From Hyphomicrobiales bacterium (lineage in GTDB: Bacteria; Pseudomonadota; Alphaproteobacteria; Rhizobiales; HXMU1428-3), in NCBI GenBank assembly GCA_021775385.1, contig JAJFHW010000324.1, positions 1 through 27,543 on the forward strand: a stretch of 27,543 nt of DNA, read 5' to 3'. Below, in pieces: positions 9,667-25,520 of this stretch. The notes below the pieces were generated by a model. That model saw nothing but the letters and a program-made list of their open reading frames with translations. It was not told the origin of the DNA and did not search any database. Within the stretch, counting starts at the first letter, position 1. Every line of letters begins with the position of its first letter. A program made the translations under genes and the position numbers.

Positions 9667-9696
9667 TTGTGGATGCTGAGTGGGCATCTGAAGCGC
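9667..9696 (+). repeat. REP-like palindrome, copy 1
   Basis: Reads TTGTG-GATGC-TGAGTGG-GCATC-TGAA-GCGC. A perfect 5-bp inner stem GATGC (9672-9676) / GCATC (9684-9688) and the TGAAGCGC tail match the consensus GYGCG-GWTGC-N7-GCAWC-TGAA-GYRC seen at five other places in the window. The outer stem is weak here. Confidence 0.72.
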
Positions 9697-9725
9697 CAGT
9701 AAAGTAACAAGCTTAAATAAAAAAT

Positions 9726-9760
9726 AGAGCATGTCTTCAAATTCAAAAGTGAGATGCTCT
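9726..9760. repeat. inverted repeat upstream of the ABC ATPase
   Basis: AGAGCAT (9726-9732) and ATGCTCT (9754-9760) are exact inverted copies separated by 21 bases containing TCAAATTCAAAAGTGA. It has no T-run and so is not a normal terminator. It may be a repeat element or an operator. Confidence 0.5.
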
Positions 9761-9835
9761 GGTTATGAAACTTTTGGTGTTGAACTTAGGCCCTTTGCCT
9801 AATTCTTTGCCGATACTTGATGGAAAGATTAATTT

Positions 9836-10930
9836 TTGAGTTTAGCATCACCAGGTTGGGGACGGCGCGGATCAGCTGCTGCGACCATTGCGGCGCGGTT
9901 AACTTTTGATAATCTAACGCGGTCATTTGATGGTAAAGGGGCTCTTCGTGGGGTCAGTCTTGATATTGAGCCAGCGGAGACTGTTTGTTTATTGGGGCCA
10001 TCTGGGTGTGGTAAAACCACACTTTTACGGATTGCTGCTGGTATAGAGCGGCCTGATAGTGGGCGGGTTTTGTTTAACCATCAAGAAGTAGTTGGACCTG
10101 ATGTTTTCACACCGCCTGAAAAACGTGGTGTTGGGCTGATGTTTCAGGATTTTGCTCTTTTTCCGCATTTAACAATTTTACAAAATGTTATGTTTGGCCT
10201 TAAAAATTTTGAGGCAAAGGATGCGACACGAGTGGCTTTAGCCACGCTTGATCGTGTTGGACTTGCCCGCTATGCGGAAGATTTTCCGCATATTCTTTCT
10301 GGCGGGCAGCAGCAACGTGTAGCATTAGCCAGAGCGATTGCACCAAGACCTAGTATTATCTTTATGGATGAGCCTTTTTCTGGACTAGACCCACGATTGA
10401 GAGATCGTATTCGTGAAGAAACATTGGCAATTTTGCGTGAGATGAGAGCAACTTCGGTGATTGTTACTCATCAAGCTGAAGAAGCGATGCGAATGGGTGA
10501 CCGGATAGCTGTTATGCGTGATGGACGAATTTTACAAGTTGGCACAAGTGAAGAGATTTATAATCACCCAAATTCCTTATTTGTGGCCCGAATTTGTGCT
10601 GAAATGAATGAAATCCCTTGCGTTGTTAAAAATGGTGAAGTTGAGACTGTTTTTGGTCGCTTTCCAGCGAATGGGTTGGATGAGGGCACTGAAGCTGTTT
10701 TTGGGGCACGTTTACTTGGTTTAAGCGTCTCTAAAGAGGGGCCTGGTGTTCAAGGGCGGGTTATTGATAGAAAGTTCTTAGGTGGTTCAGCTTTGTTAGA
10801 AATTGTGGTTGATGGACATGATTCACCATTACAAATACGTTTGAGGGAGAATACAGCCCCAAATGTAGGGGATGAAATTTTCGTTTTTGTTGATATGCAT
10901 TTGCCTTTGGTGTTGGCAAAAGACGATTAA
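9836..10930 (+). CDS. ABC transporter ATP-binding protein (FbpC/PotA type)
   Basis: A 364-residue nucleotide-binding subunit. Walker A is GPSGCGKTT (about 54-62), signature LSGGQQQR (154-161), Walker B IIFMDEP (174-180) followed by the D-loop SGLDP, and H-loop VTHQ (His212). The ~110 residues after the ATPase domain fit a TOBE-type regulatory domain. This architecture is typical of importers for ferric iron, polyamines or sugars. No permease or binding-protein gene is nearby, so the substrate cannot be given and it may serve a transporter encoded elsewhere. The start is TTG at 9836 with GGAAAG 8 bases before it; no ATG lies ahead of the conserved domain. The first ~20 residues are not part of the fold. 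It stands alone between an insertion-like gap and tatA. Confidence 0.88.
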   Translation: MSLASPGWGRRGSAAATIAARLTFDNLTRSFDGKGALRGVSLDIEPAETVCLLGPSGCGKTTLLRIAAGIERPDSGRVLFNHQEVVGPDVFTPPEKRGVGLMFQDFALFPHLTILQNVMFGLKNFEAKDATRVALATLDRVGLARYAEDFPHILSGGQQQRVALARAIAPRPSIIFMDEPFSGLDPRLRDRIREETLAILREMRATSVIVTHQAEEAMRMGDRIAVMRDGRILQVGTSEEIYNHPNSLFVARICAEMNEIPCVVKNGEVETVFGRFPANGLDEGTEAVFGARLLGLSVSKEGPGVQGRVIDRKFLGGSALLEIVVDGHDSPLQIRLRENTAPNVGDEIFVFVDMHLPLVLAKDD

Positions 10931-11051
10931 GCCCTTTTTCTTTGCTAAGTTTAACCTTATATAAGATGCAGTGGTTGCGCATATGGGTTGTTTTTGTAAT
11001 ATTGGAATAAAGAACAAGAAAATGCGCATTAGGCGTTAGGAGAAAAGAAGT

Positions 11052-11285
11052 ATGGGTTACCCTGGTATTTGGCAAATTTTAATCGTTTTACTACTTGTAG
11101 TGCTTTTATTTGGCCGCGGTAAGATTTCAGATTTGATGGGCGATGTTGCTAAAGGCATCACAAGCTTTAAAAAAGGTCTGAAAGATGAGGACCAGGATAC
11201 TGCATCAAATGTTCATTCACTTGAGCAAGGTAGTGATGCGGACAAATCTGGCTCACTAAATAAAGAAAAAGCTGATTTATCTTAA
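11052..11285 (+). CDS. tatA: Sec-independent translocase protein TatA
   Basis: A small 77-residue subunit of the twin-arginine translocase, thought to form the transport pore for folded proteins. It has a short N-terminal membrane helix ([15 protein letters not shown]), the conserved [17 protein letters not shown] hinge and amphipathic helix, then an acidic hydrophilic tail. ATG 11052 is preceded by AGGAG at 11038-11042. It is separated from tatB by 337 bases, unusually far for a tat operon. Confidence 0.95.
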
Positions 11286-11622
11286 AATTTTTAGCTGAAA
11301 CGATAGATATTAAATTTCTAGATAGTAAAGCTGAGTGTTTATAAAAAAGGTGAAGTGTGGTTTTGCTAAAATTGAGGAGTGAACCACACTTGTATCTAAT
11401 TGGATCGTAAGATCTTTATCTATTTAGGTCAGCAGATCTATATTGATTATAAAACGGCTCTTCTTTTATCAATCCATATCTAGCAATTTTAGTCTTTCAT
11501 TTTTGGGCGAGATGTTTTCTGTTTGTGATTGATCAGTCTTCTATTCGATAGATAAATATCACGTTAGATAAATCGCAAAAACACGTTCAGCTTTTTTGCT
11601 GATCTAAATGGAGTAACTTTCC
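11286..11622. other. tatA-tatB gap (337 bases)
   Basis: No credible gene. It holds a perfect 10-bp inverted repeat (11353-11391), repeated AGATCT words and a small hairpin just before tatB (TCAGC 11587-11591 / GCTGA 11598-11602). A second promoter for tatBC could lie here. Confidence 0.5.
11353..11391. repeat. perfect 10-bp inverted repeat between tatA and tatB
   Basis: AAGTGTGGTT (11353-11362) and AACCACACTT (11382-11391) with a 19-base spacer. No T-run follows, so it is not a standard terminator. It could be an RNA-processing or stabilising hairpin that sets the excess of TatA over TatBC, or an operator. Confidence 0.6.
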
Positions 11623-12102
11623 ATGTTTGATATTGGCTGGAGTGAATTACTTGTCGTTGGGCTTGTAGCGCTGATTGTGGTTGGCCCAAAAGAGTTGCCA
11701 GCGATGATGAAACGTATTGGGCAATTGATCCGCAAGGCTAAACACACCGCGGGTTCTTTTCAACGCCAATTTGAAGATGCTATGGACGAGGGTGAACTTG
11801 GTGAATTGAAAGCCAGTGTTAAAGGCATCCAGGAAGACTTAGACCCGAATAAGATTATGGGTGACATGGTTGGTGATGAAACCGTTGATGACTTTGATCT
11901 TGATAAATGGAATGAACAAATTCTTGAAGATGAGAAAAAACGTACAGAAAACCCCATTCGCACTGTGGAAGAAATGGAAGCGACCAAGGGTGAGGCAGAT
12001 ACTATTGGTGCTTTAGACAGTGATGTTTCAAGTAGTTCAGAGGTTGCAACTGAGCGTTTAAGCAAAGATCAAGACCTTGCTCAGGAGAAACAAGTTTCAT
12101 GA
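11623..12102 (+). CDS. tatB: Sec-independent translocase protein TatB
   Basis: 159 residues. TatB with TatC forms the receptor for twin-arginine signal peptides. The sequence begins MFDIGWSELLVVGLVALIVV with the conserved Glu at position 8, then GPKELPAMMKRIGQLIRKA, a long amphipathic/charged helix and an acidic, Ser-rich tail. ATG 11623 has GGAG at 11610-11613. Its stop overlaps the tatC start as ATGA, so the two are translationally coupled. Confidence 0.95.
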   Translation: MFDIGWSELLVVGLVALIVVGPKELPAMMKRIGQLIRKAKHTAGSFQRQFEDAMDEGELGELKASVKGIQEDLDPNKIMGDMVGDETVDDFDLDKWNEQILEDEKKRTENPIRTVEEMEATKGEADTIGALDSDVSSSSEVATERLSKDQDLAQEKQVS

Positions 12103-12878
12103 GTGTTGATAGTGTTGAGGACAGCAAAGCTCCTCTGATTGCTCATTTGGTTGAGCTTAGAACACGACTTTTATGGTCTCTTGTGGCGATGGCTATCGCT
12201 TTTGTGTTCTGTTTTTATTTTGCTTCGACGATCTATAATTTCTTGCTTGGTCCTTATGAAAGAGCTGTTGGGCCGGATCAAATTATTGATATGCAATTTA
12301 CAGCGCCTCATGAATTTTTCTTTACGCAATTAAAGATGTCATTGTTTGGGGCCTTTGTGATTTCTTTTCCTCTTATTGCTTTGCAGATTTATAAATTTAT
12401 TGCGCCTGGACTTTATGCAAATGAGCGGCATGCGTTTGTGCCTTATTTGATCGCTACACCTGTCTTGTTTCTCATTGGGGCTTCCATTGTTTATTATATT
12501 GTGATGCCTTTGGCTTTATCGTTTTTCCTTTCGACACAGCAGGCTGGTGATACTGGTGTGCAGATTAAACTTGTGGCGCGGGTGAGCGAATATTTCTCCT
12601 TTATTATGGCGCTGATTATGGCTTTTGGAATTTGTTTTCAATTGCCAGTGGTTTTGACCTTACTTGGGAAAGCTGGGCTGGTTACTTCTGAGTGGTTGAA
12701 AGCGAAACGGCGCTATGCTGTTGTTGCGGTGTTTGCTGCTGCCGCATTACTAACGCCACCAGACCCGATGAGCCAGCTTGGATTGGCCTTACCAACTTAC
12801 CTTCTTTATGAATTTTCCATTTGGATGGTGATGTTGGTTGAAAAGAAGCGTGATGAAAAAGAGGCGGCACGAGATTAG
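12099..12878 (+). CDS. tatC: Sec-independent translocase protein TatC
   Basis: 259 residues with six membrane segments; the signal-peptide-binding core of the Tat system. The conserved start APLIAHLVELRTRLLWS, the periplasmic segment FTAPHEFFFTQLKMSL and the helix region LLTPPDPMSQLGLALP are all present. It overlaps tatB by 4 bases. A likely local substrate is the Tat-signal aldo/keto reductase encoded 3 kb upstream, which is inference from signal type and proximity only. Confidence 0.96.
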   Translation: MSVDSVEDSKAPLIAHLVELRTRLLWSLVAMAIAFVFCFYFASTIYNFLLGPYERAVGPDQIIDMQFTAPHEFFFTQLKMSLFGAFVISFPLIALQIYKFIAPGLYANERHAFVPYLIATPVLFLIGASIVYYIVMPLALSFFLSTQQAGDTGVQIKLVARVSEYFSFIMALIMAFGICFQLPVVLTLLGKAGLVTSEWLKAKRRYAVVAVFAAAALLTPPDPMSQLGLALPTYLLYEFSIWMVMLVEKKRDEKEAARD

Positions 12879-12896
12879 AACAGCTTTATTTTTTCT

Positions 12897-12977
12897 CACG
12901 GCTATTCCATGAGCTAACGCTCATAGGCCTCCGAGGGGCGGTGCTTGCACCGGGCAGCTCGCGCTGCCATTTCCGTG
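12897..12977. repeat. cloverleaf-like multi-hairpin element
   Basis: Three perfect 6-bp hairpins in a row: ATGAGC-TAAC-GCTCAT (12909-12924), CGGTGC-TT-GCACCG (12939-12952) and GGCAGC-TCGC-GCTGCC (12953-12968). They are enclosed by the outer pair CACGG (12897-12901) / CCGTG (12973-12977). It is more GC-rich than its surroundings. It is not a tRNA (no T-loop, no anticodon arm geometry). It may be an extragenic repeat, a small RNA or an mRNA leader structure. Confidence 0.65.
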
Positions 12978-13002
12978 CTCTGAAGTAAAGCACTCCTTTT
13001 TT
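12975..13002 (+). terminator. terminator-like hairpin after tatC
   Basis: GTGCT (12975-12979), 9-base loop, AGCAC (12989-12993), then TCC and six T's. Its left arm shares GTG with the outer stem of the preceding multi-hairpin element, so the two structures would exclude each other. Probably the end of the tatABC transcript. Confidence 0.55.
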
Positions 13003-13218
13003 CGTAATGAGACTTCATGAGTTTTTTTAACGAATACAATACTATGAGACATGTTCTAGATGAATTTAACATTTGCATTTTCGCGTAAATGCCTTTGAAG
13101 AAGTGATGCTCTTTGCGTTTTTCTCAACTTTTCTAATTTGTTTCCTTGTGATAGTTAGTAGTTTGTTTACATAACTCTTTTTGGTTATGAAAATAATAGT
13201 TGTTTTTCTTTGTCCTTT

Positions 13219-13233
13219 TTAATGAACTTTTAA
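13219..13233. promoter_or_regulatory. possible CtrA-type box before serS
   Basis: TTAA-TGAACTT-TTAA fits the TTAA-N7-TTAA pattern of alphaproteobacterial CtrA sites. It is a single site in AT-rich DNA, so chance is possible. Confidence 0.3.
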
Positions 13234-13253
13234 GGCGCGCGGCGCCATTTTTT
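13234..13253 (+). terminator. terminator-like (attenuator?) hairpin just ahead of serS
   Basis: GGCGC (13234-13238), loop GCG, GCGCC (13242-13246), then A and six T's, followed at once by the serS ribosome-binding site (AGGGG 13256-13260). There is no room for a promoter between it and the start, so serS transcripts must read through it. Confidence 0.6.
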
Positions 13254-13266
13254 ATAGGGGTGATTT

Positions 13267-14547
13267 ATGTTTGATCTAAAGTGGATCCGTGAAAATAGTG
13301 AAGCCTTTGATGCTGGTCTTGCAAAGCGCGGGGCTGCGCCGCTCTCAATTGATATCTTGAAGATTGACGAAGAACGCCGCGATCATTTGAAAGCCTTGCA
13401 AGATGCGCAAGCAAAGAGGAATACCGCGTCTAAAGAAATTGGCAAGGCGAAAGCTAGCGGTGATGAAGCGGCTGCAGCGGCAGCCATTGCCGAAGTAGCG
13501 AAGATTAAAGAATTTATTCAAAATGGTGAAGAAACTGAACGTGAGATTGATGAGCGAATAAATGCGCTTTTGTCTTCCATTCCTAACTTGCCACATGATG
13601 ATGTGCCTATTGGTAATGATGAAGATGACAATGAACTTGTTCGTACAGTAGGCGAGCAACCTTCATTTGATTTTGAGCCAAAAGAGCATTTTGACATTGG
13701 CGAAGCACTGGGTTTGATGGATTTTGAAACAGCTGCCAAGATGTCAGGTAGTCGATTTGTTGTGTTATCTGGCGCTTTAGCGAGATTAGAGCGTGCGCTA
13801 GCTCAATTTATGCTTGATTTGCAAACCGGTGAGCATGGCTATACTGAAGTTTCTCCACCAACTTTGGTGAAAGCAAACGCGCTTTATGGAACAGGCCAAC
13901 TGCCAAAATTCGAAGAGGATCTCTTTAAAACAACAGGAGATCATTACCTTATTCCAACTGCTGAGGTACCACTTACAAATATTGTGGCGGATTGTATTAT
14001 TGATGAAGGGTATTTGCCGCGACGCTTCACTGCCTTTACACCTTGTTTTCGGTCTGAGGCTGGATCTGCTGGCCGAGATACAAGGGGGATGATCCGTCAA
14101 CACCAGTTCATGAAAGTTGAAATGGTGTCTGTTACAAAACCCGAATTATCAGACGCGGAACTTGAGCGTATGACAGGGTGTGCTGAAGAAGTGTTGAAAC
14201 GTCTTGGGCTGTCTTACCGTGTTATGAAGCTTTGCACCGGAGATATGGGCTTTGGTGCTCGGCGTACTTATGACCTTGAGGTTTGGTTGCCGGGACAGAA
14301 TATGTACCGCGAAATTTCAAGTTGTTCGGTTTGTGGTGACTTTCAAGCGCGGCGCATGAATACTCGTTATCGTGTTGAAGGTGAGAAAGGTGGGCACTTT
14401 GTGCACACGTTAAACGGCTCTGGTCTTGCTGTTGGGCGGACGATGGTGGCAGTCTTAGAAAATTACCAGCAAGCTGATGGTAGTGTGGTTGTTCCTGAGG
14501 TTCTAAAACCTTATATGGGTGGTATAGAGATCATCAAGGTAGATTGA
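13267..14547 (+). CDS. serS: seryl-tRNA synthetase
   Basis: Class II aminoacyl-tRNA synthetase that charges tRNA-Ser (and tRNA-Sec where present); 426 residues, normal length. The N-terminal [18 protein letters not shown] leads into the long coiled-coil arm that grips the tRNA (about residues 30-110). The catalytic core has TAEVPLTN, motif 2 [20 protein letters not shown] and motif 3 [19 protein letters not shown]. The start ATG has AGGGG 6 bases upstream. It lies between tatC and surE as in other Hyphomicrobiales; the upstream hairpin suggests control at transcript elongation. Confidence 0.97.
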
Positions 14548-14659
14548 TTTGCTGGTTACCTTTAGAAACGACTTTTTGTAATTTTGCTTCTATGGCCTAA
14601 TTTAAGTGACGTTTTTATGAGCGTGAAATTAAACAGCCCTAAACGGAGAGCTTGTCTTT

Positions 14660-15427
14660 ATGCGGATTCTTGTAACGAATGATGATGGAATTGATGCTAC
14701 AGGAATTAAAGTTTTAGAAGGCATTGCCCGTGAGCTTTCAGATGATGTCTGGGTAGTGGCGCCAGCTCTTGATAATAGTGGTGTCTCTCATTCACTTACA
14801 TTACATGAGCCTTTGCGCCATTCTCAACATGGTGAAAAAACATTTTCCATTCAAGGGACACCGACTGATTGTGTGATTATGGGGGTGCGTAAATTTTTAG
14901 GGAGTACGCCGCCAAACCTTGTTTTGTCAGGTATTAACCATGGGCAAAACATCGCTGATGATGTGACTTACTCTGGGACAATAGCAGGGGCATTTGAAGG
15001 GTCTTTACTTGGTATTCCTTCCATTGCTCTCAGTTTGTCAACAGGGATTAAATCACCTCAATCTATGTATTGGGACACGCCTAAAACCCAGGCCGCTTCG
15101 TTAATTTCTACCCTTGTAGAAGGGGGGATAAGTGCGGATATTCCTTTGAATATTAACTTTCCAGATTGTGCGCCTGAAGATGTAAAAGGGAAACTGATTA
15201 CCGTACAGGGTAAGAGAGACCAGGGATTGCTTCGAATTGACAGCAGACTAGACCCTCGAGGGCGTGATTATTTCTGGTTTGATTTTGAAAGAAAGCTTTC
15301 AAACCCAGCTAAGGGCACGGATCTTTGGGCGGTTTATAATGATTATATCTCAATCACTCCGTTACATCTCAATCTAACGCATCATGAAAGTTGTCATGCG
15401 CTTGCGCAAAAATTCAATGATGTCTGA
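14660..15427 (+). CDS. surE: 5'/3'-nucleotidase SurE
   Basis: Metal-dependent phosphatase that dephosphorylates nucleoside monophosphates and short polyphosphates; a stress/stationary-phase survival protein in the cytoplasm. 255 residues. The metal-site residues are visible: TNDDG (Asp8, Asp9), APALDNSGVSHSLT (Ser near 40) and SGINHGQN (Asn93). ACGGAGAG lies about 9 bases before the ATG. In related genomes an isoaspartyl methyltransferase gene (pcm) usually follows; here there is none, only a 388-base gap before the LysM/LytM gene. Confidence 0.96.
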   Translation: MRILVTNDDGIDATGIKVLEGIARELSDDVWVVAPALDNSGVSHSLTLHEPLRHSQHGEKTFSIQGTPTDCVIMGVRKFLGSTPPNLVLSGINHGQNIADDVTYSGTIAGAFEGSLLGIPSIALSLSTGIKSPQSMYWDTPKTQAASLISTLVEGGISADIPLNINFPDCAPEDVKGKLITVQGKRDQGLLRIDSRLDPRGRDYFWFDFERKLSNPAKGTDLWAVYNDYISITPLHLNLTHHESCHALAQKFNDV

Positions 15428-15670
15428 GGGTTATAGCCCTTTACTGGTTTTCTTCACATTCTGCCGCTTTTATATCACATTCATGAGTAAACTTATGGTT
15501 TGATGCTGTTTTATTATGCCTTTTGGGATGGGCTGGTGAAATGGGGTAATTGTGCAAACTTGAGTGATTTTTTGTCTACTCTTAAAGGTTTGTTGGTGGG
15601 CAAGCTGATTGAACTTCGATTGGTTTCAATTGCTATATGATGCATCTTATTGGTTTTTAAGGCCGCGATA

Positions 15671-15686
15671 TTAAGGAAATCTTAAC
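15671..15686. promoter_or_regulatory. CtrA-type binding box 1
   Basis: TTAA-GGAAATC-TTAAC matches the full CtrA consensus TTAA-N7-TTAAC. It lies 130 bases before the start of the LysM/LytM lipoprotein gene. CtrA is the cell-cycle master regulator of alphaproteobacteria. Confidence 0.6.
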
Positions 15687-15722
15687 CATATCTATTGAGG
15701 TTAATAGCTCAAATTGTAACTA

Positions 15723-15737
15723 TTAAGGTTTTGTTAA
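15723..15737. promoter_or_regulatory. CtrA-type binding box 2
   Basis: TTAA-GGTTTTG-TTAA, a second complete TTAA-N7-TTAA motif 52 bases after the first. Two boxes in one 388-base gap are unlikely by chance even in AT-rich DNA. Confidence 0.6.
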
Positions 15738-15768
15738 TCTTTTCCGGGCTTAAATTTAACTATGTTAG

Positions 15769-15792
15769 AAGTGGGCAGTTCCACTTTTTTTT
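15769..15792 (+). terminator. terminator-like (attenuator?) hairpin before the LysM lipoprotein gene
   Basis: AAGTGG (15769-15774), loop GCAGTT, CCACTT (15781-15786) running into T's to 15792. It is oriented for plus-strand transcription and ends 24 bases before the GTG start, so it either ends a surE transcript or acts within the leader of the next gene. Confidence 0.65.
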
Positions 15793-15815
15793 AGTATGCG
15801 TGATAGAGGCCTGTT

Positions 15816-17423
15816 GTGAGTATAGTAACGCGTTTAACAATGATTGTGGCTATGTGTCTGGTTTTACCGGCATGTAGTTCAAATATGACCCGGTTTGATG
15901 CCCCAAGTTTGGGTATGAAACAAAGCGGTATTTCTGAAGACACCCCCATAAATGGCAATAGAGTGCAGCGTGATCAATCTAGCGATAGATCTTATGCGCA
16001 ACCAGATTATCGTCAATCTCAGTACAATAGAGATTTTAAGCAATCTGATTATCAGAAACCAGCTGACCGTTATAGTTCTAGCCAGAACCAGTATAATAAT
16101 ACGCGCACTAATGATTATGGGCGTAATAATTATAATGATTATCGTCAGCAATATTCTCAAAAACAATATGCTGAGAATAAATACAGCCAAAACAGATTTA
16201 ATAATTCGAAAGATGGATATCAGCCTAAGAAAATCTACAAAGATTATTCTGATCGCGATGTCTATGACACAAAGAGTACGCCTGATAGCCGGAATGCTTA
16301 TGATAATCGTTTCCAGAACAAAAATGGTTATGATCAAAATTCTGTGCAGCGTGAAACATTGCCTGATATTCAGCAATCTAATCGCCGTGAAGAAACGCGC
16401 GATCAACCAACACGCAAGGTGACGACTTATCGCTATGTGCCGCAAAATGCGCGCAAAGAAAGCGATTATCAGCAGCCACGCCAAAAGCAGGCACTACGTC
16501 AACAGGCTGACAAATTTGTTGAGCACCGTGTTGTTCAAGGTGATACGCTTTATAATATTTCCAAACGATATAACGTGCAGCAACAAGACATCAGCCGTGA
16601 AAACAACATTGATGGATCTGGCATTAAACTAGGGCAACGATTACGTATTCCGGGTGTGAGCCAACGAAATGTAGATGAGATTTCTCAAAAGTCAGTTGAG
16701 AAAAAATCTGTTGTTACTGCCCTTAAGGCGGGTGACAGATACCGGGTGAAAAGTGGTGATACCGTTTATAGCATTGCACGGCGCTCAGGTGTTTCTCCTC
16801 AAGACTTAGCGGATGCCAACGGACTTGATAATGTTGGACAGGTGAAGCTTGGCCAAGAGTTAGTTATTCCAGGAAAACAAGCTCAGAAGAAACCTGTTCG
16901 TGTTGCATCTATTGATAGAAATGCGGGCATCTCGAAACTTGCTCGAAAGTCTTCAAAAGCTCCTGTTCCAGTTCGTAAGAAAGTGGCTGCCAAAAACAAG
17001 ATTAAATCAGTTGATGCTGGTGTTTCTAAACGGCTTTCAGGGCCGCATCGGTTTATGTGGCCAGTTGGTGGACGGATTGTTTCTAAGTTTGGTCGTCAAA
17101 AAAGCGGAACCATCAATGATGGTGTGAACCTTTCTGTACCGGTTGGCACAAAAGTGAAGGCTGCTGAAAGTGGCACGGTTGCTTATGCTGGAAACGAGCT
17201 CAAAGGTTATGGGAACTTGATTTTGGTGCGTCATAAGAATAACTGGGTTAGCGCTTATGCGCATAATAGCAAGTTGCTTGTGAAACGCGGTGATAAGGTT
17301 TCTCGTGGGCAATTGATTGCTAAATCAGGTAAATCTGGAACTGTGAACCAACCGCAGTTACACTTTGAACTTCGCAAAGGCTCGAAGCCTGTAAACCCAA
17401 TGAAATACTTGGCTATGAGGTAA
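15816..17423 (+). CDS. LysM and LytM (M23-like) domain lipoprotein, NlpD/DipM type
   Basis: 535 residues. The start is GTG with AGAGG 6 bases upstream. The signal peptide ends in the lipobox LPAC (Cys20), so it is a lipoprotein, presumably in the outer membrane. Residues ~46-230 are a disordered stretch rich in Gln, Asn, Tyr, Arg and Ser. Two LysM peptidoglycan-binding domains follow (about 236-280 and 308-353), then a basic linker and a LytM domain (405-535). The metal ligands of active M23 peptidases are lost: the His and Asp of the HxGxD-type motif are Asn434 and Asn438 in INDGVN, and the first His of HxH is Gln514 in PQLHFE. This pattern fits non-enzymatic activators of cell-wall amidases such as NlpD, EnvC and DipM, acting at division. 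A terminator overlaps its stop codon. Confidence 0.92.
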   Translation: MSIVTRLTMIVAMCLVLPACSSNMTRFDAPSLGMKQSGISEDTPINGNRVQRDQSSDRSYAQPDYRQSQYNRDFKQSDYQKPADRYSSSQNQYNNTRTNDYGRNNYNDYRQQYSQKQYAENKYSQNRFNNSKDGYQPKKIYKDYSDRDVYDTKSTPDSRNAYDNRFQNKNGYDQNSVQRETLPDIQQSNRREETRDQPTRKVTTYRYVPQNARKESDYQQPRQKQALRQQADKFVEHRVVQGDTLYNISKRYNVQQQDISRENNIDGSGIKLGQRLRIPGVSQRNVDEISQKSVEKKSVVTALKAGDRYRVKSGDTVYSIARRSGVSPQDLADANGLDNVGQVKLGQELVIPGKQAQKKPVRVASIDRNAGISKLARKSSKAPVPVRKKVAAKNKIKSVDAGVSKRLSGPHRFMWPVGGRIVSKFGRQKSGTINDGVNLSVPVGTKVKAAESGTVAYAGNELKGYGNLILVRHKNNWVSAYAHNSKLLVKRGDKVSRGQLIAKSGKSGTVNQPQLHFELRKGSKPVNPMKYLAMR

Positions 17424-17456
17424 GAGGTTTTCTTTCTCTTACCTGCTATTTTTTTT
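17418..17456 (+). terminator. intrinsic terminator of the LysM/LytM gene
   Basis: Perfect 9-bp stem AGGTAAGAG (17418-17426) / CTCTTACCT (17436-17444), 9-base loop, then GCTA and eight T's. The stop codon lies inside the left arm. Confidence 0.85.
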
Positions 17457-17460
17457 AGTT

Positions 17461-17490
17461 GTGCTTCAGATGCCAACAAAGCATCCGCAC
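17461..17490 (-). repeat. REP-like palindrome, copy 2
   Basis: On the minus strand it reads GTGCG-GATGC-TTTGTTG-GCATC-TGAA-GCAC. Both the inner stem (GATGC/GCATC) and outer stem (GTGC/GCAC) are perfect. It matches copy 3 at 24 of 30 positions. Confidence 0.78.
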
Positions 17491-17566
17491 TTGGGCCATA
17501 GAGGGGCGGTATTTTTTGTGACCAGCTCTTATTTCTGCTCGCTAAAGCTCCGCTCAGACTGATCTT

Positions 17567-17596
17567 GCGCTTCAATTGCCGACAAAGCAAACGCAC
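17567..17596 (-). repeat. REP-like palindrome, copy 3
   Basis: Minus strand GTGCGTTTGC-TTTGTCG-GCAATTGAAGCGC. The inner stem keeps 4 bp; relative to copy 2 one A-T pair has become T-A, a compensatory change. The similarity to copy 2 continues loosely into the flank (both have GGTATTT...GTGA), making a duplicated unit of about 61-66 bases. Confidence 0.75.
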
Positions 17597-17712
17597 CTCT
17601 GTACTACCAGAAAAATGGTATTTGTTTCGTGATCTCAGATTTGCGAAAATGAATGAACCAAACATCGTGTCCTTGCGACTTATAGGGGTAACTTAAGTAA
17701 AAGGAATTCACG

Positions 17713-17940
17713 ATGTATAAGAAATTATTTGCACTAGTGGTTTTAGTGATGGCTCTTCCAGCTCCTGTGTTGGCTGGAGCTAAAGTAAAGATGCAAACTA
17801 ATGACCTTCATTCTGTTGAAAAGTTTGAGACCGTATCTCGCGCTAATCAGGCACGTAAAAGTAAGCGCCAGAAGTGCCTTGATATGATGCTTCCGCAAGA
17901 TGGTGTTGATTGTTTGAAGAAATTGAAAGCGAAGAAATAG
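17713..17940 (+). CDS. small secreted basic protein, unknown function
   Basis: 75 residues. The signal peptide (MYKKLFALVVLVMALPAPVLA) probably ends after residue 21, leaving a 54-residue mature protein rich in Lys, Gln and Ser with two cysteines (about 16 residues apart) and a Lys-rich end. Support for it being real: AAGGAA 7 bases before the ATG, a clean signal peptide, and a perfect bidirectional terminator ~100 bases after the stop. I do not recognise a family. The two cysteines could form a disulfide in the periplasm. Confidence 0.7.
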   Translation: MYKKLFALVVLVMALPAPVLAGAKVKMQTNDLHSVEKFETVSRANQARKSKRQKCLDMMLPQDGVDCLKKLKAKK

Positions 17941-18043
17941 TCTGGTAAAAACAAGAGGATTACAACTGAGCTTTGACTGGTTGCTTTGAAAAAAGTGACT
18001 TCAATTTGGGGCTTCAAGTTGGCGTTAATATATTTGAATATTA

Positions 18044-20426: not shown

Positions 20427-20505
20427 TAATAGATTTGGCACGGATGGTTCATTTAGTTCTCTACTTGTACTCTACCTGTGCTCTTTGGTGTGAAAGGTAT
20501 TTTCC

Positions 20506-22143
20506 ATGCTGCATTTTTCTAGATGGAAAACATTTATAGTTTGGGGCTTTGCCCTTCTGGGTGTGCTATGTGCAGCTCCCAACCTTATCCCTGAAAAAGA
20601 TTTGGCTAGTTACCCACAATTTGTTCAGAATTTAAGACTGAACCTTGGTTTGGACTTACGTGGTGGTTCCCATTTGCTTTTAAAAATGGATAAAGATCTC
20701 CTGATTGAAAAGCAAATTAAGGTATTGCGCGGTAATGTGCGGACTGTATTGCGTGGTAAACGTGATGGAGCGGCTCGGACCGGTGCTATTCGCTATCGTG
20801 ATTTAAGTGCGAAAAAAGATCGGGTTGAATTTAAGCCGTCTGACCCAGCTGATTTGGAAAAAGCTTACCAAGCGGCTCGTACGCTTATTGAACCACTCGC
20901 ATCTACATCTTTTGGCACGACGCCAGGTAATAATGTAGACGTTGAGAAAACGGCTGATGGACGAATTGTTGTGAGGCCTTCTGAGCCAGCAATAACAGCT
21001 AAAATATCAACTTCACTTGATTCTGCTATTGAAGTCTTGAGGCGCAGGGTTGATGCCTTGGGTACTACTGAGCCTTCTATTCAGCGCCAAGGTGAAGACC
21101 GGATTTTGTTACAAGTGCCTGGTTATGATGATTCTGATAAGTTGAAAGCCGTTGTTAAACAAGCGGCTGTGCTTTCTTTTCACTTGGTGGTACGGCCTGC
21201 AAATGTTGAAGAAGCGGCTGACGGGCTAACTGAGCCGGGGACTACAATCTTCCCGTCTAAGGATCAATATTCCACGCACTATATTCTGGAAGATGAACCT
21301 TTGATTACAGGTGCTGATTTGGCAAATGCGCGGCAAGAGATTAGCCCGCAGTCTAGCCGGCCCGTTGTTTCTTTTAGATTGAATTCTCGTGGTGCTGTTC
21401 GCTTTGGTGATGTAACAGCGGCGAACGTTGGGCGCCCATTTGCGATTGTCTTGGACGGTGAAGTGATTTCTGCACCGACCATTCAGGAAGCAATTACTGG
21501 TGGTTCTGGACAAATTTCTGGAAACTTTACAGTTTCAACTGCTGATGACTTGGCGATTTTATTACGCTCTGGTTCTTTAGAAGCGCCGTTGACTATTTTA
21601 GAAGAACGGACTGTTGATGCGAGCCTTGGTGCTGACTCTATTGCTGCTGGTAAGTTGGCCGCAATTATTGGTCTTGTTGGGGTTGTTGCATTCATTCTGA
21701 TGGCGTATGGCACGTTTGGTCTTTATGCAAACATTGCTCTATTGATTAATATTTCGATGATTATCGGGGCGCTTTCGTTGCTGCAAGCGACTTTAACTTT
21801 ACCCGGAATTGCGGGTATCGTTCTTACCATGGGTATGGCGGTTGATGCGAATGTGCTTATTTTTGAGCGGATCCGTGAAGAATTGCGGGCTGGTAAAACA
21901 GCGATTAGTGCGATTGAATCAGGTTATTCTAGAGCTCTTTCAACCATCTTGGATGCGAATATTACTACATTCTTGGCGGCGATTATTCTCTTTTGGCTTG
22001 GTTCTGGACCGGTAAGCGGTTTTGCGGTGACTTTATCAATTGGTATTTTTACATCTGTGTTTACCGCATTTGTATTAACCAGATGGCTAATTGCCTGGTG
22101 GTTGCGCTCACAGAGATCTAAAACTGTTGATATGCCAATATAG
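20506..22143 (+). CDS. secD: protein translocase subunit SecD
   Basis: 545 residues. SecD with SecF uses the proton gradient to pull exported proteins into the periplasm after SecA-driven translocation. It has an N-terminal membrane helix, the conserved LNLGLDLRGGSHLLLKMD (about 46-63), a large periplasmic domain, and five C-terminal membrane helices with GMAVDANVLIFERIREELR. GAAAGG precedes the ATG. The secF start lies 13 bases after its stop. Confidence 0.96.
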   Translation: MLHFSRWKTFIVWGFALLGVLCAAPNLIPEKDLASYPQFVQNLRLNLGLDLRGGSHLLLKMDKDLLIEKQIKVLRGNVRTVLRGKRDGAARTGAIRYRDLSAKKDRVEFKPSDPADLEKAYQAARTLIEPLASTSFGTTPGNNVDVEKTADGRIVVRPSEPAITAKISTSLDSAIEVLRRRVDALGTTEPSIQRQGEDRILLQVPGYDDSDKLKAVVKQAAVLSFHLVVRPANVEEAADGLTEPGTTIFPSKDQYSTHYILEDEPLITGADLANARQEISPQSSRPVVSFRLNSRGAVRFGDVTAANVGRPFAIVLDGEVISAPTIQEAITGGSGQISGNFTVSTADDLAILLRSGSLEAPLTILEERTVDASLGADSIAAGKLAAIIGLVGVVAFILMAYGTFGLYANIALLINISMIIGALSLLQATLTLPGIAGIVLTMGMAVDANVLIFERIREELRAGKTAISAIESGYSRALSTILDANITTFLAAIILFWLGSGPVSGFAVTLSIGIFTSVFTAFVLTRWLIAWWLRSQRSKTVDMPI

Positions 22144-22156
22144 GGGGATTAGTTCT

Positions 22157-23107
22157 ATGGCGTTTAAAGGTATTGATTTTGTCCCTCATGGTACAAAAAT
22201 TCCGTTTGTTTCTATGCGAAACATTACTTTCATCCTTTCAGGACTAGCGGTGATTGCATCGATTGCATTATTTTCAACCAAAGGTTTGAACTACGGTATT
22301 GACTTTCTTGGCGGTACTTCGATTGAAGTTCGTCATAAAGCTGGACCGGCTAACATTGCTGATGTGCGCTCGAAAGTTGGGGCGCTTGGGTTTGGTGATG
22401 TTCAAATTCAGCAATTTAATGACCCTCGAGATGTTTTGGTACGGATTGAACTGCAATCAGGTGGTGAAGAAGCGAACCAAAACGCACTTGATAAAATCAA
22501 GGTAGCACTCGGTGATGGTTTTGAATTTCGCAACACTGAAGTGATTGGCCCTACTGTTTCTGGTGAGTTAACCAGAGCTGGTATTATTGCGGTGATCACG
22601 GCTATTTTTGTTGTGCTGATTTATATTTGGCTCCGGTTTGAGTGGCAGTTTTCACTTGGTGCGGTTGTTGCACTTGTGCATGATATTGTGCTCACCATTG
22701 GTATTTTCTCACTCTTGCAACTTGAATTTACGCTTTCTATCATCGCGGCTTTGCTGACGATTGTTGGTTACTCGCTCAACGATACGGTGGTTGTTTATGA
22801 CCGTGTGCGTGAGAATTTGCGTAAATTTAAAAAGATGCCACTGAATGAATTACTTGACGTTTCGATTAATGAAACACTTTCACGGACGATTTTAACATCT
22901 GTGACAACATTGATTGCTCTTGTTTCATTGTTTGTTTTCGGTGGTGAGGTGATCCGTGGATTTGTTTTTGCGATGATTTGGGGTGTTGTGGTTGGTACTT
23001 ATTCCTCGATCTTTATCGCATCACCAGTTCTTTTGCTTGTTGGTGTTAAACGTGACTGGAGTGGCCTTGGTGGTGCTAAATATAAAGAACCTGGCACTGC
23101 AAAATAA
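22157..23107 (+). CDS. secF: protein translocase subunit SecF
   Basis: 316 residues from ATG 22157, preceded by GGGGGA at 22144-22149; the frame is open further upstream inside secD, but that part is a shadow. It has the SecF marks GLNYGIDFLGGTSIEV, FEWQFSLGAVVALVHDIVLT, and VGYSLNDTVVVYDRVRENLR in the C-terminal membrane bundle. Partner of SecD. A strong terminator follows 19 bases after the stop. Confidence 0.96.
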   Translation: MAFKGIDFVPHGTKIPFVSMRNITFILSGLAVIASIALFSTKGLNYGIDFLGGTSIEVRHKAGPANIADVRSKVGALGFGDVQIQQFNDPRDVLVRIELQSGGEEANQNALDKIKVALGDGFEFRNTEVIGPTVSGELTRAGIIAVITAIFVVLIYIWLRFEWQFSLGAVVALVHDIVLTIGIFSLLQLEFTLSIIAALLTIVGYSLNDTVVVYDRVRENLRKFKKMPLNELLDVSINETLSRTILTSVTTLIALVSLFVFGGEVIRGFVFAMIWGVVVGTYSSIFIASPVLLLVGVKRDWSGLGGAKYKEPGTAK

Positions 23108-23126
23108 GAATTAAAAAATTTGTTTT

Positions 23127-23154
23127 AAAAGGCGCTGTTTTCAGCGCCTTTTTT
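23127..23154 (+). terminator. intrinsic terminator after secF
   Basis: AAAAGGCGCTG (23127-23137) / CAGCGCCTTTT (23142-23152), perfect 11-bp stem, TTTT loop, T-run to 23154. It closes the yajC-secD-secF operon and implies that the next gene has its own promoter. Confidence 0.92.
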
Positions 23155-23271
23155 GTGGTCGGTTTTGTTTTGTGATTGGGTAAATTTTGTATTGCGGGTC
23201 ATTTCTTTGACGTTATCTTTTATATGGTATGCCACAATTTAAATTGTTTATTTTAAACGAGGTTTTTCTAA

Positions 23272-24099
23272 ATGAAGATGGTCTTTGGACTTTTAAATTT
23301 GATTATTGTTCTTTTTTATACGTCACCACTAGTTGCGCAGCCAATTGACACTGTTTCTCATCTTGAATGGGGCAAGTTTTTTGAGAAAGCTGGTGTGTCA
23401 GGAACGGTTGTTTTTAAGGAACTTGGCCGTGACAAGCGGCATGTTTTTGATAGAACAAGAGCTGAGAAACGTAAGATACCTGCATCGACTTTTAAAGTTA
23501 TTCACAGTTTGATTGCTTATGAAACTGGCGTAGTAACCAAGGCTGATCAATTGTTTAAATGGGATGGTAAACCACAATGGTTGAAGGCTTGGGAGAGAGA
23601 TTTGACATTTAAAGAAGCGATCAAAGTTTCTGCAGTTCCGGTTTATAAGAGAATTGCCAAGGCGGTTGGACCCAAAAAAATGAATTATTGGTTGCAGCGC
23701 TTAAATTATGGCAATGGAAATATTGATGGAGGGATCAGTGAATTTTGGTTGCCTGGTGGTGGGTTAAAAGTTTCAGCATATGAGCAGGTAACTATGCTTG
23801 AGAAACTCTATACCGGGCAATTAAATGCTTCTAAAGATGGGCAAGCTTTTGTTCGTGACATTTTACCTGTTACTAAGCACAAGTGTTTTGTTATTAAAGC
23901 TAAAACGGGATTAGCTTTTCGTAAAAACGGTCCACATATTGGTTGGTGGATTGGTTGGGCAAAAGCTCAGCAACAGGTTATCTTTTTTGCTTTGAATATT
24001 GATATAAAAGACAAAAAGCAATATGGACTCCGCCAATCATTGGCTGTTTCTTTGTTAGAGCGGGCTCAATTGTTTAAAGAGAAACTTTGCGCTAGTTAA
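23272..24099 (+). CDS. class D (OXA-type) beta-lactamase
   Basis: 275 residues with a signal peptide (about 1-22), so periplasmic. All class D serine-enzyme motifs are present at proper spacing: Ser72-Thr-Phe-Lys75 (PASTFK), Ser120-Ala-Val122, Tyr146-Gly-Asn148, a Trp near 159 in the place of the conserved Trp, and Lys211-Thr-Gly213 (KAKTG). The family hydrolyses beta-lactams through a carboxylated active-site Lys. Length is normal for OXA enzymes. The ATG has a GAGG-type site about 9 bases upstream. It follows the secF terminator and is 17 bases from the Mth938-like gene, probably in one transcript. secF is normally followed directly by that gene in relatives, so it appears inserted. Actual drug spectrum cannot be read from sequence, and a non-resistance role is possible. 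Confidence 0.9.
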   Translation: MKMVFGLLNLIIVLFYTSPLVAQPIDTVSHLEWGKFFEKAGVSGTVVFKELGRDKRHVFDRTRAEKRKIPASTFKVIHSLIAYETGVVTKADQLFKWDGKPQWLKAWERDLTFKEAIKVSAVPVYKRIAKAVGPKKMNYWLQRLNYGNGNIDGGISEFWLPGGGLKVSAYEQVTMLEKLYTGQLNASKDGQAFVRDILPVTKHKCFVIKAKTGLAFRKNGPHIGWWIGWAKAQQQVIFFALNIDIKDKKQYGLRQSLAVSLLERAQLFKEKLCAS

Positions 24100-24116
24100 C
24101 TTATGAAAGTTACGAG

Positions 24117-24491
24117 ATGAAACATGATGCTTATTACCCCGAGCCGTTAGAACTAGAGGCGTATGGCAATGGTGGGTTTCGCTTTGGAGAAATGAGCCAT
24201 GTTGGGTCTTTGCTCATTCTACAGAGCGGTATTTATGGATGGGATGTGACTGAATTTGATGATGCGCATCCTAATGGTTTTCAAGCGGTGTTTGATGAGG
24301 CTGAAGCCCATGAATTTTTAATTTTTGGCACTGGAGATAAGCAACGATTTCCGTCTAAAGAGCTGCGAAGTTCATTTGAAAATGCTGGGCTTGGACTTGA
24401 AGTGATGGACACGGGAGCAGCTGCGCGGACATATAATGTTTTAATCTCAGAAGGACGAAAAGTTGCCGCTGCCTTTATCGCTGTTGATTAA
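24117..24491 (+). CDS. Mth938-like domain protein (NDUFAF3-related)
   Basis: 124 residues forming one Mth938-like fold: GNGGFRFGEMSHVGSLLIL near the start, then EFLIFGTGDKQRFP and the end segment DTGAAARTYNVLISEGRKVA are typical. The human relative NDUFAF3 is an assembly factor of respiratory complex I; the bacterial role is not defined. The ribosome-binding site is weak, so it may rely on coupling to the beta-lactamase gene before it. The downstream gene is also related to a complex I assembly factor. Confidence 0.87.
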   Translation: MKHDAYYPEPLELEAYGNGGFRFGEMSHVGSLLILQSGIYGWDVTEFDDAHPNGFQAVFDEAEAHEFLIFGTGDKQRFPSKELRSSFENAGLGLEVMDTGAAARTYNVLISEGRKVAAAFIAVD

Positions 24492-24520
24492 CGCGGTTGT
24501 TTTGCAGGTAACTGAAGTGC
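24491..24520 (+). repeat. REP-like palindrome, copy 4
   Basis: ACGCG-GTTGT-TTTGCAG-GTAAC-TGAA-GTGC. The inner stem is kept using one reversed pair (A-T to T-A) and two G-U pairs compared with copy 2. It begins at the last base of the stop codon of the Mth938-like gene and is in tandem with copy 5. Confidence 0.75.
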
Positions 24521-24528
24521 AATTAACA

Positions 24529-24557
24529 GCGCGGTTGCTTGTAGGCAACTGAAGCGC
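24529..24557 (+). repeat. REP-like palindrome, copy 5
   Basis: GCGCG-GTTGC-TTGTAG-GCAAC-TGAA-GCGC. Perfect inner stem (GTTGC/GCAAC) and perfect outer stem (GCGC/GCGC); the loop is one base shorter than in the other copies. It ends 23 bases before the GTG start of the next gene, so it may affect translation there. Confidence 0.78.
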
Positions 24558-24580
24558 AACTAAAAAAGGTTGTTTTAAGA

Positions 24581-25474
24581 GTGTTTCCTCTAGACAAAAA
24601 TCAAAACGAATTAGAAGCGATCATTTTGCGATTAAAGCATCGTGACTATGCGGGGTATTTGAGTGTTCGATTTTCTCCTTTGAAAAACCGAGCAGCATTA
24701 ACCTGGCTCTTTGGTTTTTTCATGGATGTTGAGCAAATTTCTCTGAAGGTGAATGAACCATTGCTTGGTGAAATTCGTTTGCAATGGTGGCGTGATCAAT
24801 TGTTAAAGCTGCTTAGAAGTGAGAGTGTTGGGCATCCGGTTGCTGATGGCCTATCTCCTTATTTTAAAAAGTCTGGTGACCAGTTATTTAAAGAAATGAT
24901 TGCCATTGTTGATAGCTTTGGTTTTGAAATTCAAAAAGAGCCGATTAAAACAAAGGCTGAATTGCATTCAATATTGGATCAACGGTATGGCAGTTTTTTG
25001 AGAGCTGGTTTGATCTTGATTGATGGTCAGTTCAATGGCCAGGATGTTGTTTGTTCTGAAGCGGGCAAAGCAATTGGGCTTACGATTTTGCTGGCTGAAT
25101 TAAATGGTTATTTACACCGAGACATCATGCCCTTGCCGCAAGACGTCATGAGCCTTCATGATTTGTTTCATGAGGACTTTTTAGCGAAGAAGCCAAGCTC
25201 TGAAGAAAAAGAAGATGATGGAGCTAGTGATGATGTTAAAAGGCTAGCTAAAACAAAGGTCCTGGATGAAATACTTGATGGTCTTATGATTGGCAGCTGG
25301 GATATTAAGGCACATATGAAGAAAGTACCATCCGAGCAAAAGGCTTTGCTTGCTCGTTGGTTGTTGGTTCCGCACTTGGTGACTTCAGCCTTGAGAGATC
25401 GTGAGAATGGTGAGGCTGGGATTACAAGTTTAAATCCTTTGAAAGTCTTTTTTACACTTTACTTTAAACGATAA
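24581..25474 (+). CDS. squalene/phytoene synthase family protein (NDUFAF6-like)
   Basis: 297 residues, all-helical trans-prenyltransferase-like fold. Family marks are FGFFMDVEQISLKVNEPLLG, GEIRLQWWRDQL (about 65-76) and LLAELNGYLHRDIMPLPQDV. The Asp-rich metal-binding motifs needed for prenyl condensation are not clear (the second region reads LAELNGYLHRD), so enzymatic squalene synthesis is doubtful. The closest functional model is the mitochondrial complex I assembly factor NDUFAF6, which has the same degenerate fold. The start is GTG at 24581 with AAGG at 24566-24569; the first in-frame Met is too far inside. It follows the Mth938-like gene and two tandem REP-like hairpins. A terminator overlaps its stop. 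Confidence 0.85.
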   Translation: MFPLDKNQNELEAIILRLKHRDYAGYLSVRFSPLKNRAALTWLFGFFMDVEQISLKVNEPLLGEIRLQWWRDQLLKLLRSESVGHPVADGLSPYFKKSGDQLFKEMIAIVDSFGFEIQKEPIKTKAELHSILDQRYGSFLRAGLILIDGQFNGQDVVCSEAGKAIGLTILLAELNGYLHRDIMPLPQDVMSLHDLFHEDFLAKKPSSEEKEDDGASDDVKRLAKTKVLDEILDGLMIGSWDIKAHMKKVPSEQKALLARWLLVPHLVTSALRDRENGEAGITSLNPLKVFFTLYFKR

Positions 25475-25490
25475 GCTCATCGTTCTTTTT
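25467..25490 (+). terminator. terminator overlapping the stop of the phytoene-synthase-like gene
   Basis: AACGAT (25467-25472), loop AAGCTC, ATCGTT (25479-25484), then C and five T's. Confidence 0.65.
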
Positions 25491-25520
25491 GAGGTTTAGG
25501 TGTGCACAAAGCATCAGCAA
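25491..25520 (-). repeat. REP-like palindrome, copy 6 (probable, decayed)
   Basis: Ungapped comparison with copy 2 gives about 21 of 30 identical bases, including an exact ACAAAGCATC. The stem is no longer well paired. It lies in the gap before the SGNH hydrolase gene. Confidence 0.45.

What the first reader, a model, noticed from the sequence alone, without database searches (positions are those of the whole stretch)
9667..25520. New-looking dispersed REP-like repeat family with compensatory stem changes
Six sites (9667-9696 +, 17461-17490 -, 17567-17596 -, 24491-24520 +, 24529-24557 +, and a decayed 25491-25520 -) share the pattern GYGCG-GWTGC-N6/7-GCAWC-TGAA-GYRC. All are intergenic. They occur in both orientations, twice as close pairs. 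The inner stem is kept through paired changes (A-T to T-A in copies 3, 4 and 5; G-U pairs in copy 4), so a folded RNA or single-strand DNA is selected. The one-sided TGAA bulge is conserved. This resembles REP elements moved by RAYT (Y1 transposase-like) proteins, but I do not recognise the consensus.
Basis: seen in the sequence. Interest (0 to 1): 0.78.

Follow-up and report, generated by a model that had tools for sequence, protein, structure and literature searches.

The report
Hairpin repeats locked to one strand
A short hairpin-forming DNA repeat has spread through one little-known bacterial genus, without any sign of the enzyme that usually moves such repeats, and nearly every copy examined points the same way relative to the chromosome's strand composition, which suggests that it spreads at the replication fork.

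Summary
Five of the six reported copies are real; the decayed sixth is not distinguishable from chance. They belong to a family of over 100 copies per genome in the richest species of one uncultured Hyphomicrobiales genus, and almost absent from sampled order-mates. Covariation supports the hairpin. The RAYT reading is not supported: 7 of 8 genomes have no detectable Y1 transposase, the only two Y1 genes found have no copy beside them, there is no GTAG/CGTC tag, and neighbouring copies are head-to-tail (139 of 140 pairs). 329 of 333 copies in 120 loci lie on the locus's A-rich strand, on contigs up to 1.3 Mb, whichever way genes point. Each unit carries an A-rich 3' tail. Copies stand in tandem and are often nested in another copy's loop (42 of 488 by a strict rule; control 9). 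Two species differ in occupied sites. Two other repeat families share the polarity. I read it as a non-autonomous hairpin repeat spreading by a fork-coupled single-strand route, enzyme unknown. Strand assignment and mechanism are inferred. The window is atypical: 3 of its 5 copies lie on the minority strand.

The parts
9667..9696 (+). copy 1 of the hairpin repeat; lies inside a RIME1-like intergenic repeat; orientation against the strand rule
   Evidence: (43.9 bits)
17461..17490 (-). copy 2; best-scoring copy in the window, with tail AACTAAAA just below it (about 17452-17460); orientation agrees with the window's strand composition
   Evidence: (55.5 bits)
17567..17596 (-). copy 3; orientation agrees with the window's strand composition
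   Evidence: (45.7 bits)
24491..24520 (+). copy 4, tandem with copy 5 (spacing 38); orientation against the strand rule
   Evidence: (27.1 bits)
24529..24557 (+). copy 5 (29-nt form with 6-nt loop), with tail AACTAAAAAAG at 24558-24568; orientation against the strand rule
   Evidence: (47.5 bits)
9626..9762 (+). RIME1-like intergenic repeat (AAAAGTGGATACCGGTTTT motif) that hosts copy 1; the name RIME1 is recalled, ends approximate
   Evidence: sequence; related insertions

Best explanation
This is a genus-specific family of about 40-nt non-autonomous hairpin repeats. SHOWN: each unit has a 4-bp outer stem, a 5-6-bp inner stem, a 6-7-nt loop mostly ending GTGG, a one-sided TGAA/TAAA bulge 3' of the inner stem, and an A-rich 3' tail of about 10 nt (MACTAAAAA). 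Units are dispersed, mostly in spacers, often tandem (commonest spacing 39-40 nt) and sometimes nested in each other's loops. Occupied sites differ between species. Nearly all units examined lie on the A-rich strand, the strand on which co-oriented genes are C-rich at third positions. INFERRED: that strand has the sequence of the lagging strand. A new copy is made from, or inserted as, single-stranded DNA at replication forks, so mostly one orientation is produced. The hairpin is what is recognised, and hairpin loops are favoured targets. The protein responsible acts in trans, is not a recognisable Y1/RAYT or reverse transcriptase, and may be shared with the other polar repeat families.
For: Copy number and near restriction to the genus. 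Covariation; the two outermost pairs, left free by my finder, are Watson-Crick in 58-75% against 34-37% by permutation. Polarity: AT skew is positive in 45 of 45 plus-only loci and negative in 34 of 34 minus-only loci, one of the 80 loci being mixed; 329 of 333 copies lie on the A-rich strand of their locus; in the 93 loci with two or more copies 306 of 309 agree with their locus majority; 99 of the 100 listed G002 copies (of 188) follow their contig's majority. Gene orientation is not the cause: 419 ORFs of at least 150 codons run with and 376 against the element, with opposite third-position skews, GC3 -0.245 and +0.185. G002 against G003: 43 copies in 300 kb and 38 in 280 kb of largely syntenic DNA, all on one strand, with shared, private and tandem-number differences. 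Nesting: 42 of 488 distinct copies by a strict rule, 0 with the host on the other strand, 9 in a mixed-flank control; one is a 37-bp insertion into a host copy's loop. Tail. Head-to-tail neighbours: 139 of 140.
Against: No mobilising gene was found. No target-site rule was derived, and most empty/filled comparisons are not clean. Whole-locus GC skew follows polarity only weakly: 231 of 333 copies on the C-rich and 102 on the G-rich strand, 40% of plus-only loci having positive GC skew. The lagging-strand assignment rests on the usual rule that the leading strand is G-rich. rpoB lies opposite to known copies on its contig in G002, G003 and G006 but with them in G004 and G007, where rpoB itself has lagging-type skew; the other three genomes were not judged. 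A looser finder sees single minority copies in 4 of 20 G002 stretches. The window breaks the rule in 3 of 5 copies, and at one of those sites related copies in G002 and G003 are in the same 'wrong' orientation, so wrong-strand copies can arise or persist. Which strand folds is not settled: inner-stem G-T against A-C mismatches are 18 to 15 in type a and 40 to 15 in type b.
Confidence: 0.55

Rival explanations
1. No dedicated enzyme: copies spread by replication itself. Hairpin-tipped lagging-strand ends or flaps switch template or are re-incorporated at another fork, so a copy from the lagging strand can only land in the lagging strand.
For: Two unrelated repeat families share the polarity (72 of 77 start motifs for the 'CGAAGAAGGAG' element, 15 of 15 for the RIME-like motif in the 120 non-overlapping loci). 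Exact repeats of at least 20 nt and at least 1 kb apart are direct rather than inverted about 10:1 (69:7 and 79:5), and 39:5 and 22:2 after the hairpin elements are masked, against 144:123 in an order-mate. Tandem and nested growth.
Against: Does not explain the defined 5' boundary and conserved tail, nor insertion at new non-homologous sites. Repeat pairs within one family are not independent. A reversed control motif with 20 hits also leans to the A-rich strand, 14:6. The order-mate region has no strand asymmetry, so inversions there may have erased polarity.
Confidence: 0.2
2. Classical REP elements moved by a RAYT (Y1 HUH transposase) that acts on the lagging-strand template, possibly through the beta sliding clamp.
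For: Size, abundance, imperfect palindrome with bulge; IS200/IS605-type Y1 enzymes act on the lagging-strand template and are thought to bind the clamp (PMC6006769, passages); REP-bearing genomes without tnpAREP are noted there too.
Against: No PF01797 hit in 7 of 8 genomes; no copy beside the two Y1 genes in G003; no GTAG/CGTC tag; head-to-tail instead of inverted pairs.
Confidence: 0.1
3. A selected polar chromosome signal (KOPS/AIMS-like or a priming site; names recalled) kept in one orientation per replichore by function.
For: Near-absolute polarity along contigs of 1.16 and 1.32 Mb.
Against: Several sites are private between species about 90% identical, copies nest and expand in tandem, two unrelated repeats share the polarity, and one species of the genus has only 3 matches (G001).
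Confidence: 0.1
4. RNA-level elements (terminators, mRNA stabilisers) oriented with transcription.
For: Of 216 copies placed between ORFs, 131 are in tandem, 51 in convergent and 34 in divergent spacers.
Against: Orientation does not follow the flanking genes (81 with, 50 against in tandem spacers); an A-run, not a T-run, follows the hairpin; no Rfam match in the window at gathering scores.
Confidence: 0.04

Closest known systems
REP elements and REPINs/BIMEs mobilised by RAYT (GTAG super-family)
   Same: Short imperfect palindromes in high copy; [quoted passage not shown] fluorescens SBW25 genome, are reported (PMC3116915, passages)
   Different: No GTAG tag, no RAYT found in 7 of 8 genomes, head-to-tail and nested in one orientation instead of inverted pairs or alternating orientation (PMC2817692, start of abstract in a listing), family-wide strand polarity, A-rich 3' tail
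CGTC-tagged REPs of Alphaproteobacteria (PMC3733652; abstract, four sections and passages seen)
   Same: Predominantly alphaproteobacterial, short stem-loops, apparently no dedicated transposase
   Different: No CGTC tag and no CCA tail; CGTC repeats are mostly head-to-head dimers with head-to-tail negligible, whereas here head-to-tail is the rule
IS200/IS605-type single-strand transposition, and replication-oriented transposable elements (Gomez et al. 2014, title seen in a reference list; paper not held)
   Same: Hairpin recognition and fork coupling would give one orientation; orientation set by replication has been claimed for bacterial transposable elements
   Different: No left and right ends, no transposase gene, no defined target tetranucleotide found
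RIME1-type intergenic mosaic elements of Rhizobiales (name and family recalled; no sequence source read)
   Same: Intergenic mosaic; one copy in the window sits inside such an element
   Different: Unrelated, longer sequence; in two order-mates the motif occurs on both strands, 26/20 and 45/65, with runs of one orientation along contigs

Membership tests
RAYT-mobilised REP (GTAG type) | Short palindrome in many copies, mostly outside genes | tested here: met
   216 of 333 copies between ORFs, 89 inside mechanical ORFs of at least 80 codons (not checked), 28 at locus edges
RAYT-mobilised REP (GTAG type) | Unpaired GTAG tag at one end | tested here: not met
   GTAG in the 5' flank of 7 and the 3' flank of 1 of 442 copies, reverse form CTAC in 2 and 8; logos
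RAYT-mobilised REP (GTAG type) | RAYT (PF01797) gene in the genome, flanked by the repeat | tested here: not met
   no hit in 7 of 8 genomes; G003's two genes have no copy in C1:9000-18000, nearest at 8180
RAYT-mobilised REP (GTAG type) | Inverted pairs (BIME/REPIN) | tested here: not met
   139 same-strand and 1 opposite-strand neighbour pairs within 200 bp
CGTC REP | CGTC-type tag and CCA tail | tested here: not met
   CGTC in 2 (5') and 13 (3') of 442 copies, variants TGTC and CCTC not counted; the 3' tail consensus is MACTAAAAA
CGTC REP | Mostly head-to-head dimers | tested here: not met
   against PMC3733652 section 6
Retroelement product (reverse transcriptase) | RT gene in genomes rich in copies | tested here: not met
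   PF00078 found in G004 and G006 only, not in G000, G002, G003 or G007
Single-strand (HUH-type) mobile DNA in the broad sense | Movement as single-stranded DNA at forks | not testable with these tools
   inferred from polarity only

The most novel reading that the evidence does not exclude
In this genus short dispersed repeats in general, not just this one, spread through single-stranded DNA of fixed fork identity, so repeat copying is tied to lagging-strand synthesis and needs no element-specific transposase; hairpin loops of resident copies act as landing sites.
Probability: 0.2. Interest if true: 0.85.

Novelty: new variant of a known kind. Interest (0 to 1): 0.62.

Why it matters
REP-type repeats are usually inverted pairs tied to a RAYT gene. 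Here a dispersed hairpin family without a detectable one is locked to one compositional strand along megabase contigs and lands in its own loops. That gives a clean genomic system in which to ask how transposase-less palindromic repeats (an open point for alphaproteobacterial CGTC REPs, PMC3733652 abstract) multiply, and whether replication-fork single strands are the route.

Tried and rejected
RAYT/Y1: searched in own genome and genus, not supported. Reverse transcriptase (retron or group II route): not found in four of the five copy-richest genomes. Known structured RNA: no Rfam match in the window, and only a tRNA in 100 kb of G002, both at gathering scores. Transcription orientation as cause: rejected. 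Strand that folds, from G-T against A-C: inconclusive. Sixth copy: not supported. Weak extra model hit at 26690-26717 (18.4 bits): not counted as a copy. Relatives in other order members: 191 of 199 genomes had none at E 1e-4, and seven of the eight with matches are of the same genus (strict filters); the pattern hits looked at in G031 and G022 (one each) do not look like copies. Ori/ter flip: the element-poor first 100 kb of G003 C1 has mixed skew and no clear switch. E. coli K-12 as repeat-orientation control: too few repeats in 200 kb to be useful. The exact scan of genome contigs stopped at 100 stretches, so it shows hosts, not the full host range. A Y2 or other HUH family was not searched.

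Literature: searches listed no paper that I could recognise from its title or abstract start as reporting replication-strand polarity of REP-like repeats; I opened only passages or sections of four papers (PMC3116915, PMC6006769, PMC3733652, PMC4692102). PMC4692102 reports no strand preference for a G-rich repeat (passage). PMC3116915 describes tandem REP arrays in opposite orientation on opposite sides of the SBW25 genome (passage), a possible precedent that I did not pursue. Gomez et al. 2014 on replication and the orientation of transposable elements is known to me here only by its title in a reference list; it is not held. on RIME1 gave no sequence source. The library holds open-licence papers only.

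Caveats on counts: model searches score at most 150 candidates per genome. My finder allows 4 mismatches, with 0 matches in the reversed control, but misses the 29-nt form of copy 5 and of some G003 copies, so its counts are lower bounds; a separate search for that form finds 3 in the 120 loci, all on the A-rich strand. One search's figure of 330 of 333 on the locus-majority strand includes 24 single-copy loci that agree trivially, so I use 329 of 333 by AT skew and 306 of 309 in multi-copy loci. Loci L042-L141 were chosen because they hold a copy. Loci overlap for the other families, so I use the recount. One search's text rule gave 45 nested cases, some false because the right half belonged to a following copy; one search is the stricter recount, and its mixed-flank control gives 9. 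Copies shared by descent between species are counted separately. In one search species labels were missing for 100 loci and the output was cut; I drew no count from it. One search had a failed BLAST step, repeated.
Full report
OBSERVATION. Four match GYGCGGWTGC-N7-GCAWCTGAAGYGC with up to 3 mismatches, with none in 100 shuffles. A covariance model from 33 own-genome copies, four of them the window's, finds all five with E below 1e-5 in the window. The sixth, 'decayed' site is not found even with filters off, and sites as good are expected by chance.

FAMILY. The window's genome (2.88 Mb in 400 contigs, 79% complete) holds 87 pattern matches, with 0 for the reversed pattern. In the same genus the pattern counts are 185, 139, 146, 51, 22, 5 and 1 in G002, G003, G006, G007, G004, G005 and G001. 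The 33 order-mates of that search have 6 matches in all, against 10 for the reversed control (41 genomes). With the model, 8 of 8 genus members have matches, from 3 to 151, with only 150 candidates scored per genome. In 199 genomes of the order, 8 have matches at E 1e-4, seven of them in this genus.

ANATOMY. In 33 aligned copies 97.6% of pair cells are standard pairs, against 90.5% when shuffled and 18-44% when slid. On 233 and 145 distinct 30-mers of two subtypes, the outermost two pairs, which the finder leaves free, are Watson-Crick in 58 and 75% (type a) and 73 and 72% (type b), where permutation gives 36 and 37%, and 37 and 34%. Type a is mostly GGATGC/GCATC with a 7-nt loop; type b is mostly GGTTGC/GCAACC with a 6-nt loop; a GGTTTC/GAAACC variant exists. 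Loops mostly end in GTGG and the bulge is TGAA or TAAA. Downstream, about 10 nt are conserved (AA..AAAA in type a, CACTAAAAA in type b); upstream only 1-2 nt are. So the unit is a hairpin plus an A-rich 3' tail, about 40 nt, which matches the commonest spacing of neighbours (39-40 nt). Of 333 copies in 120 loci, 216 lie between ORFs, 89 inside mechanical ORFs of at least 80 codons that I did not check, and 28 at locus edges.

POLARITY. In the 80 first-fetched loci, AT skew is positive in all 45 that hold only plus copies and negative in all 34 that hold only minus copies; one locus is mixed. In 120 non-overlapping loci of five species, 329 of 333 copies lie on the A-rich strand of their locus. 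In the 93 loci with two or more copies, 306 of 309 agree with the locus majority. Whole-locus GC skew follows less well: 231 copies on the C-rich and 102 on the G-rich strand. Of 188 pattern matches in G002, 100 are listed, and 99 agree with their contig's majority; all 32 listed on contig C1 (1.16 Mb) are plus, though a looser finder sees one minus match in each of two C1 stretches. In 17 sampled stretches of G004 C1 (1.32 Mb) AT skew is always positive, GC skew negative in 14, and all 6 copies seen are plus.

Genes point both ways: 419 ORFs of at least 150 codons run with and 376 against the element's majority strand, and their third-position skews are opposite (GC3 -0.245 and +0.185). So the element follows strand composition, not transcription. 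With the usual rule that the leading strand is G- and T-rich (established knowledge), the element reads along the lagging-strand sequence. rpoB supports this in G002, G003 and G006 and contradicts it in G004 and G007, where rpoB itself shows lagging-type skew; the other three genomes were not judged (with copies). In the window, copies 2 and 3 agree with the overall skew and copies 1, 4 and 5 do not. At the site of copies 4 and 5 the orthologous spacer in G002 and G003 holds related tandem copies in the same orientation, while G006 holds one in the other orientation (read by eye; my finder sees only one of these).

DYNAMICS. Comparing G002 C1:826001-1126000 with G003 C4 (HSPs average 89.7% identity), 43 and 38 copies are all on one strand. 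Some sites are shared, several are private to one species, and tandem numbers differ. One 37-bp gap is a unit inserted in the loop of another unit. Among 488 distinct held copies, a strict rule finds 42 nested in the loop of a same-strand host, 0 in an opposite-strand host, and 9 when flanks of different copies are mixed as a control; an earlier, looser rule gave 45. Neighbouring copies within 200 bp are on the same strand in 139 of 140 pairs.

NOT ONLY THIS FAMILY. In the 120 non-overlapping loci, a second repeat ('CGAAGAAGGAG...GCCGTGAGAGA') follows the same strand in 72 of 77 start motifs and 66 of 68 end motifs, and the RIME-like motif in 15 of 15; a reversed control motif gave 14:6 in a larger, partly overlapping set. 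Without any family in mind, exact 20-mers repeated at least 1 kb apart are direct:inverted 69:7 (G003) and 79:5 (G002); with the hairpin elements masked it is 39:5 and 22:2. In 280 kb of an order-mate it is 144:123. Pairs within a family are not independent. That order-mate region has no strand asymmetry, so frequent inversion there could have erased any polarity.

MOBILISER. PF01797 (Y1/RAYT) has no hit in 7 of 8 genomes at E 1e-3, although the same search rings in E. coli and Caulobacter controls. G003's two Y1 genes lie in a 100-kb region with one copy, at 8180, and none in 9000-18000. Reverse transcriptase (PF00078) is present in 2 of 8 genomes. No candidate was found. A divergent HUH protein below Pfam sensitivity remains possible, and so does loss from the assemblies; other HUH families were not searched.

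READING. The best reading is a REP-like, non-autonomous hairpin repeat that spreads by a single-strand, fork-coupled route in one orientation. It works like REP or IS200-type DNA in a broad sense, but fails the tested tag, transposase and pairing features of GTAG and CGTC REPs. The main rival is copying by replication without a dedicated enzyme, which the shared polarity of unrelated repeats makes attractive. Replication-set orientation has been claimed before for bacterial transposable elements (Gomez et al. 2014, title only), so the bias as such is not without precedent. What looks new is its near-completeness in a dispersed hairpin family with no detectable transposase, together with loop nesting.

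Noticed in passing
window 9626-9762: A RIME1-like intergenic repeat (AAAAGTGGATACCGGTTTT motif) hosts copy 1; similar RIME-like copies with a hairpin unit inside occur as insertions between G002 and G003. The name is recalled.
   Followed up: partly
G002 C1:826001-1126000 and G003 C4 (loci L213-L241): A second intergenic repeat of roughly 130 bp or more ('CGAAGAAGGAG...GCCGTGAGAGA'), no Rfam match in 100 kb of G002 scanned, strand-polar in 72 of 77 start motifs. Its end motif also occurs at window 12892 (-).
   Followed up: partly
G002 C1:826001-1126000 and G003 C4: Exact dispersed repeats of at least 20 nt are about 10:1 direct over inverted, unlike 280 kb of an order-mate.
   Followed up: partly
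G003 C1:1-100000: An element-poor region with weak, mixed skew; its 9-18 kb part holds two Y1 (RAYT-like) genes beside ORFs that look to me like a toxin-immunity cluster (not tested). It may be a genomic island or near the terminus.
   Followed up: no
G004 C1:52141 and G007 C30:89752: rpoB has lagging-type third-position skew, unlike in the five other species of the genus where it could be computed.
   Followed up: no
window 23272-24099 (+): A transpeptidase-domain protein (PF00905) that looks like a class D beta-lactamase or penicillin-binding protein; the family guess beyond Pfam is from memory.
   Followed up: no
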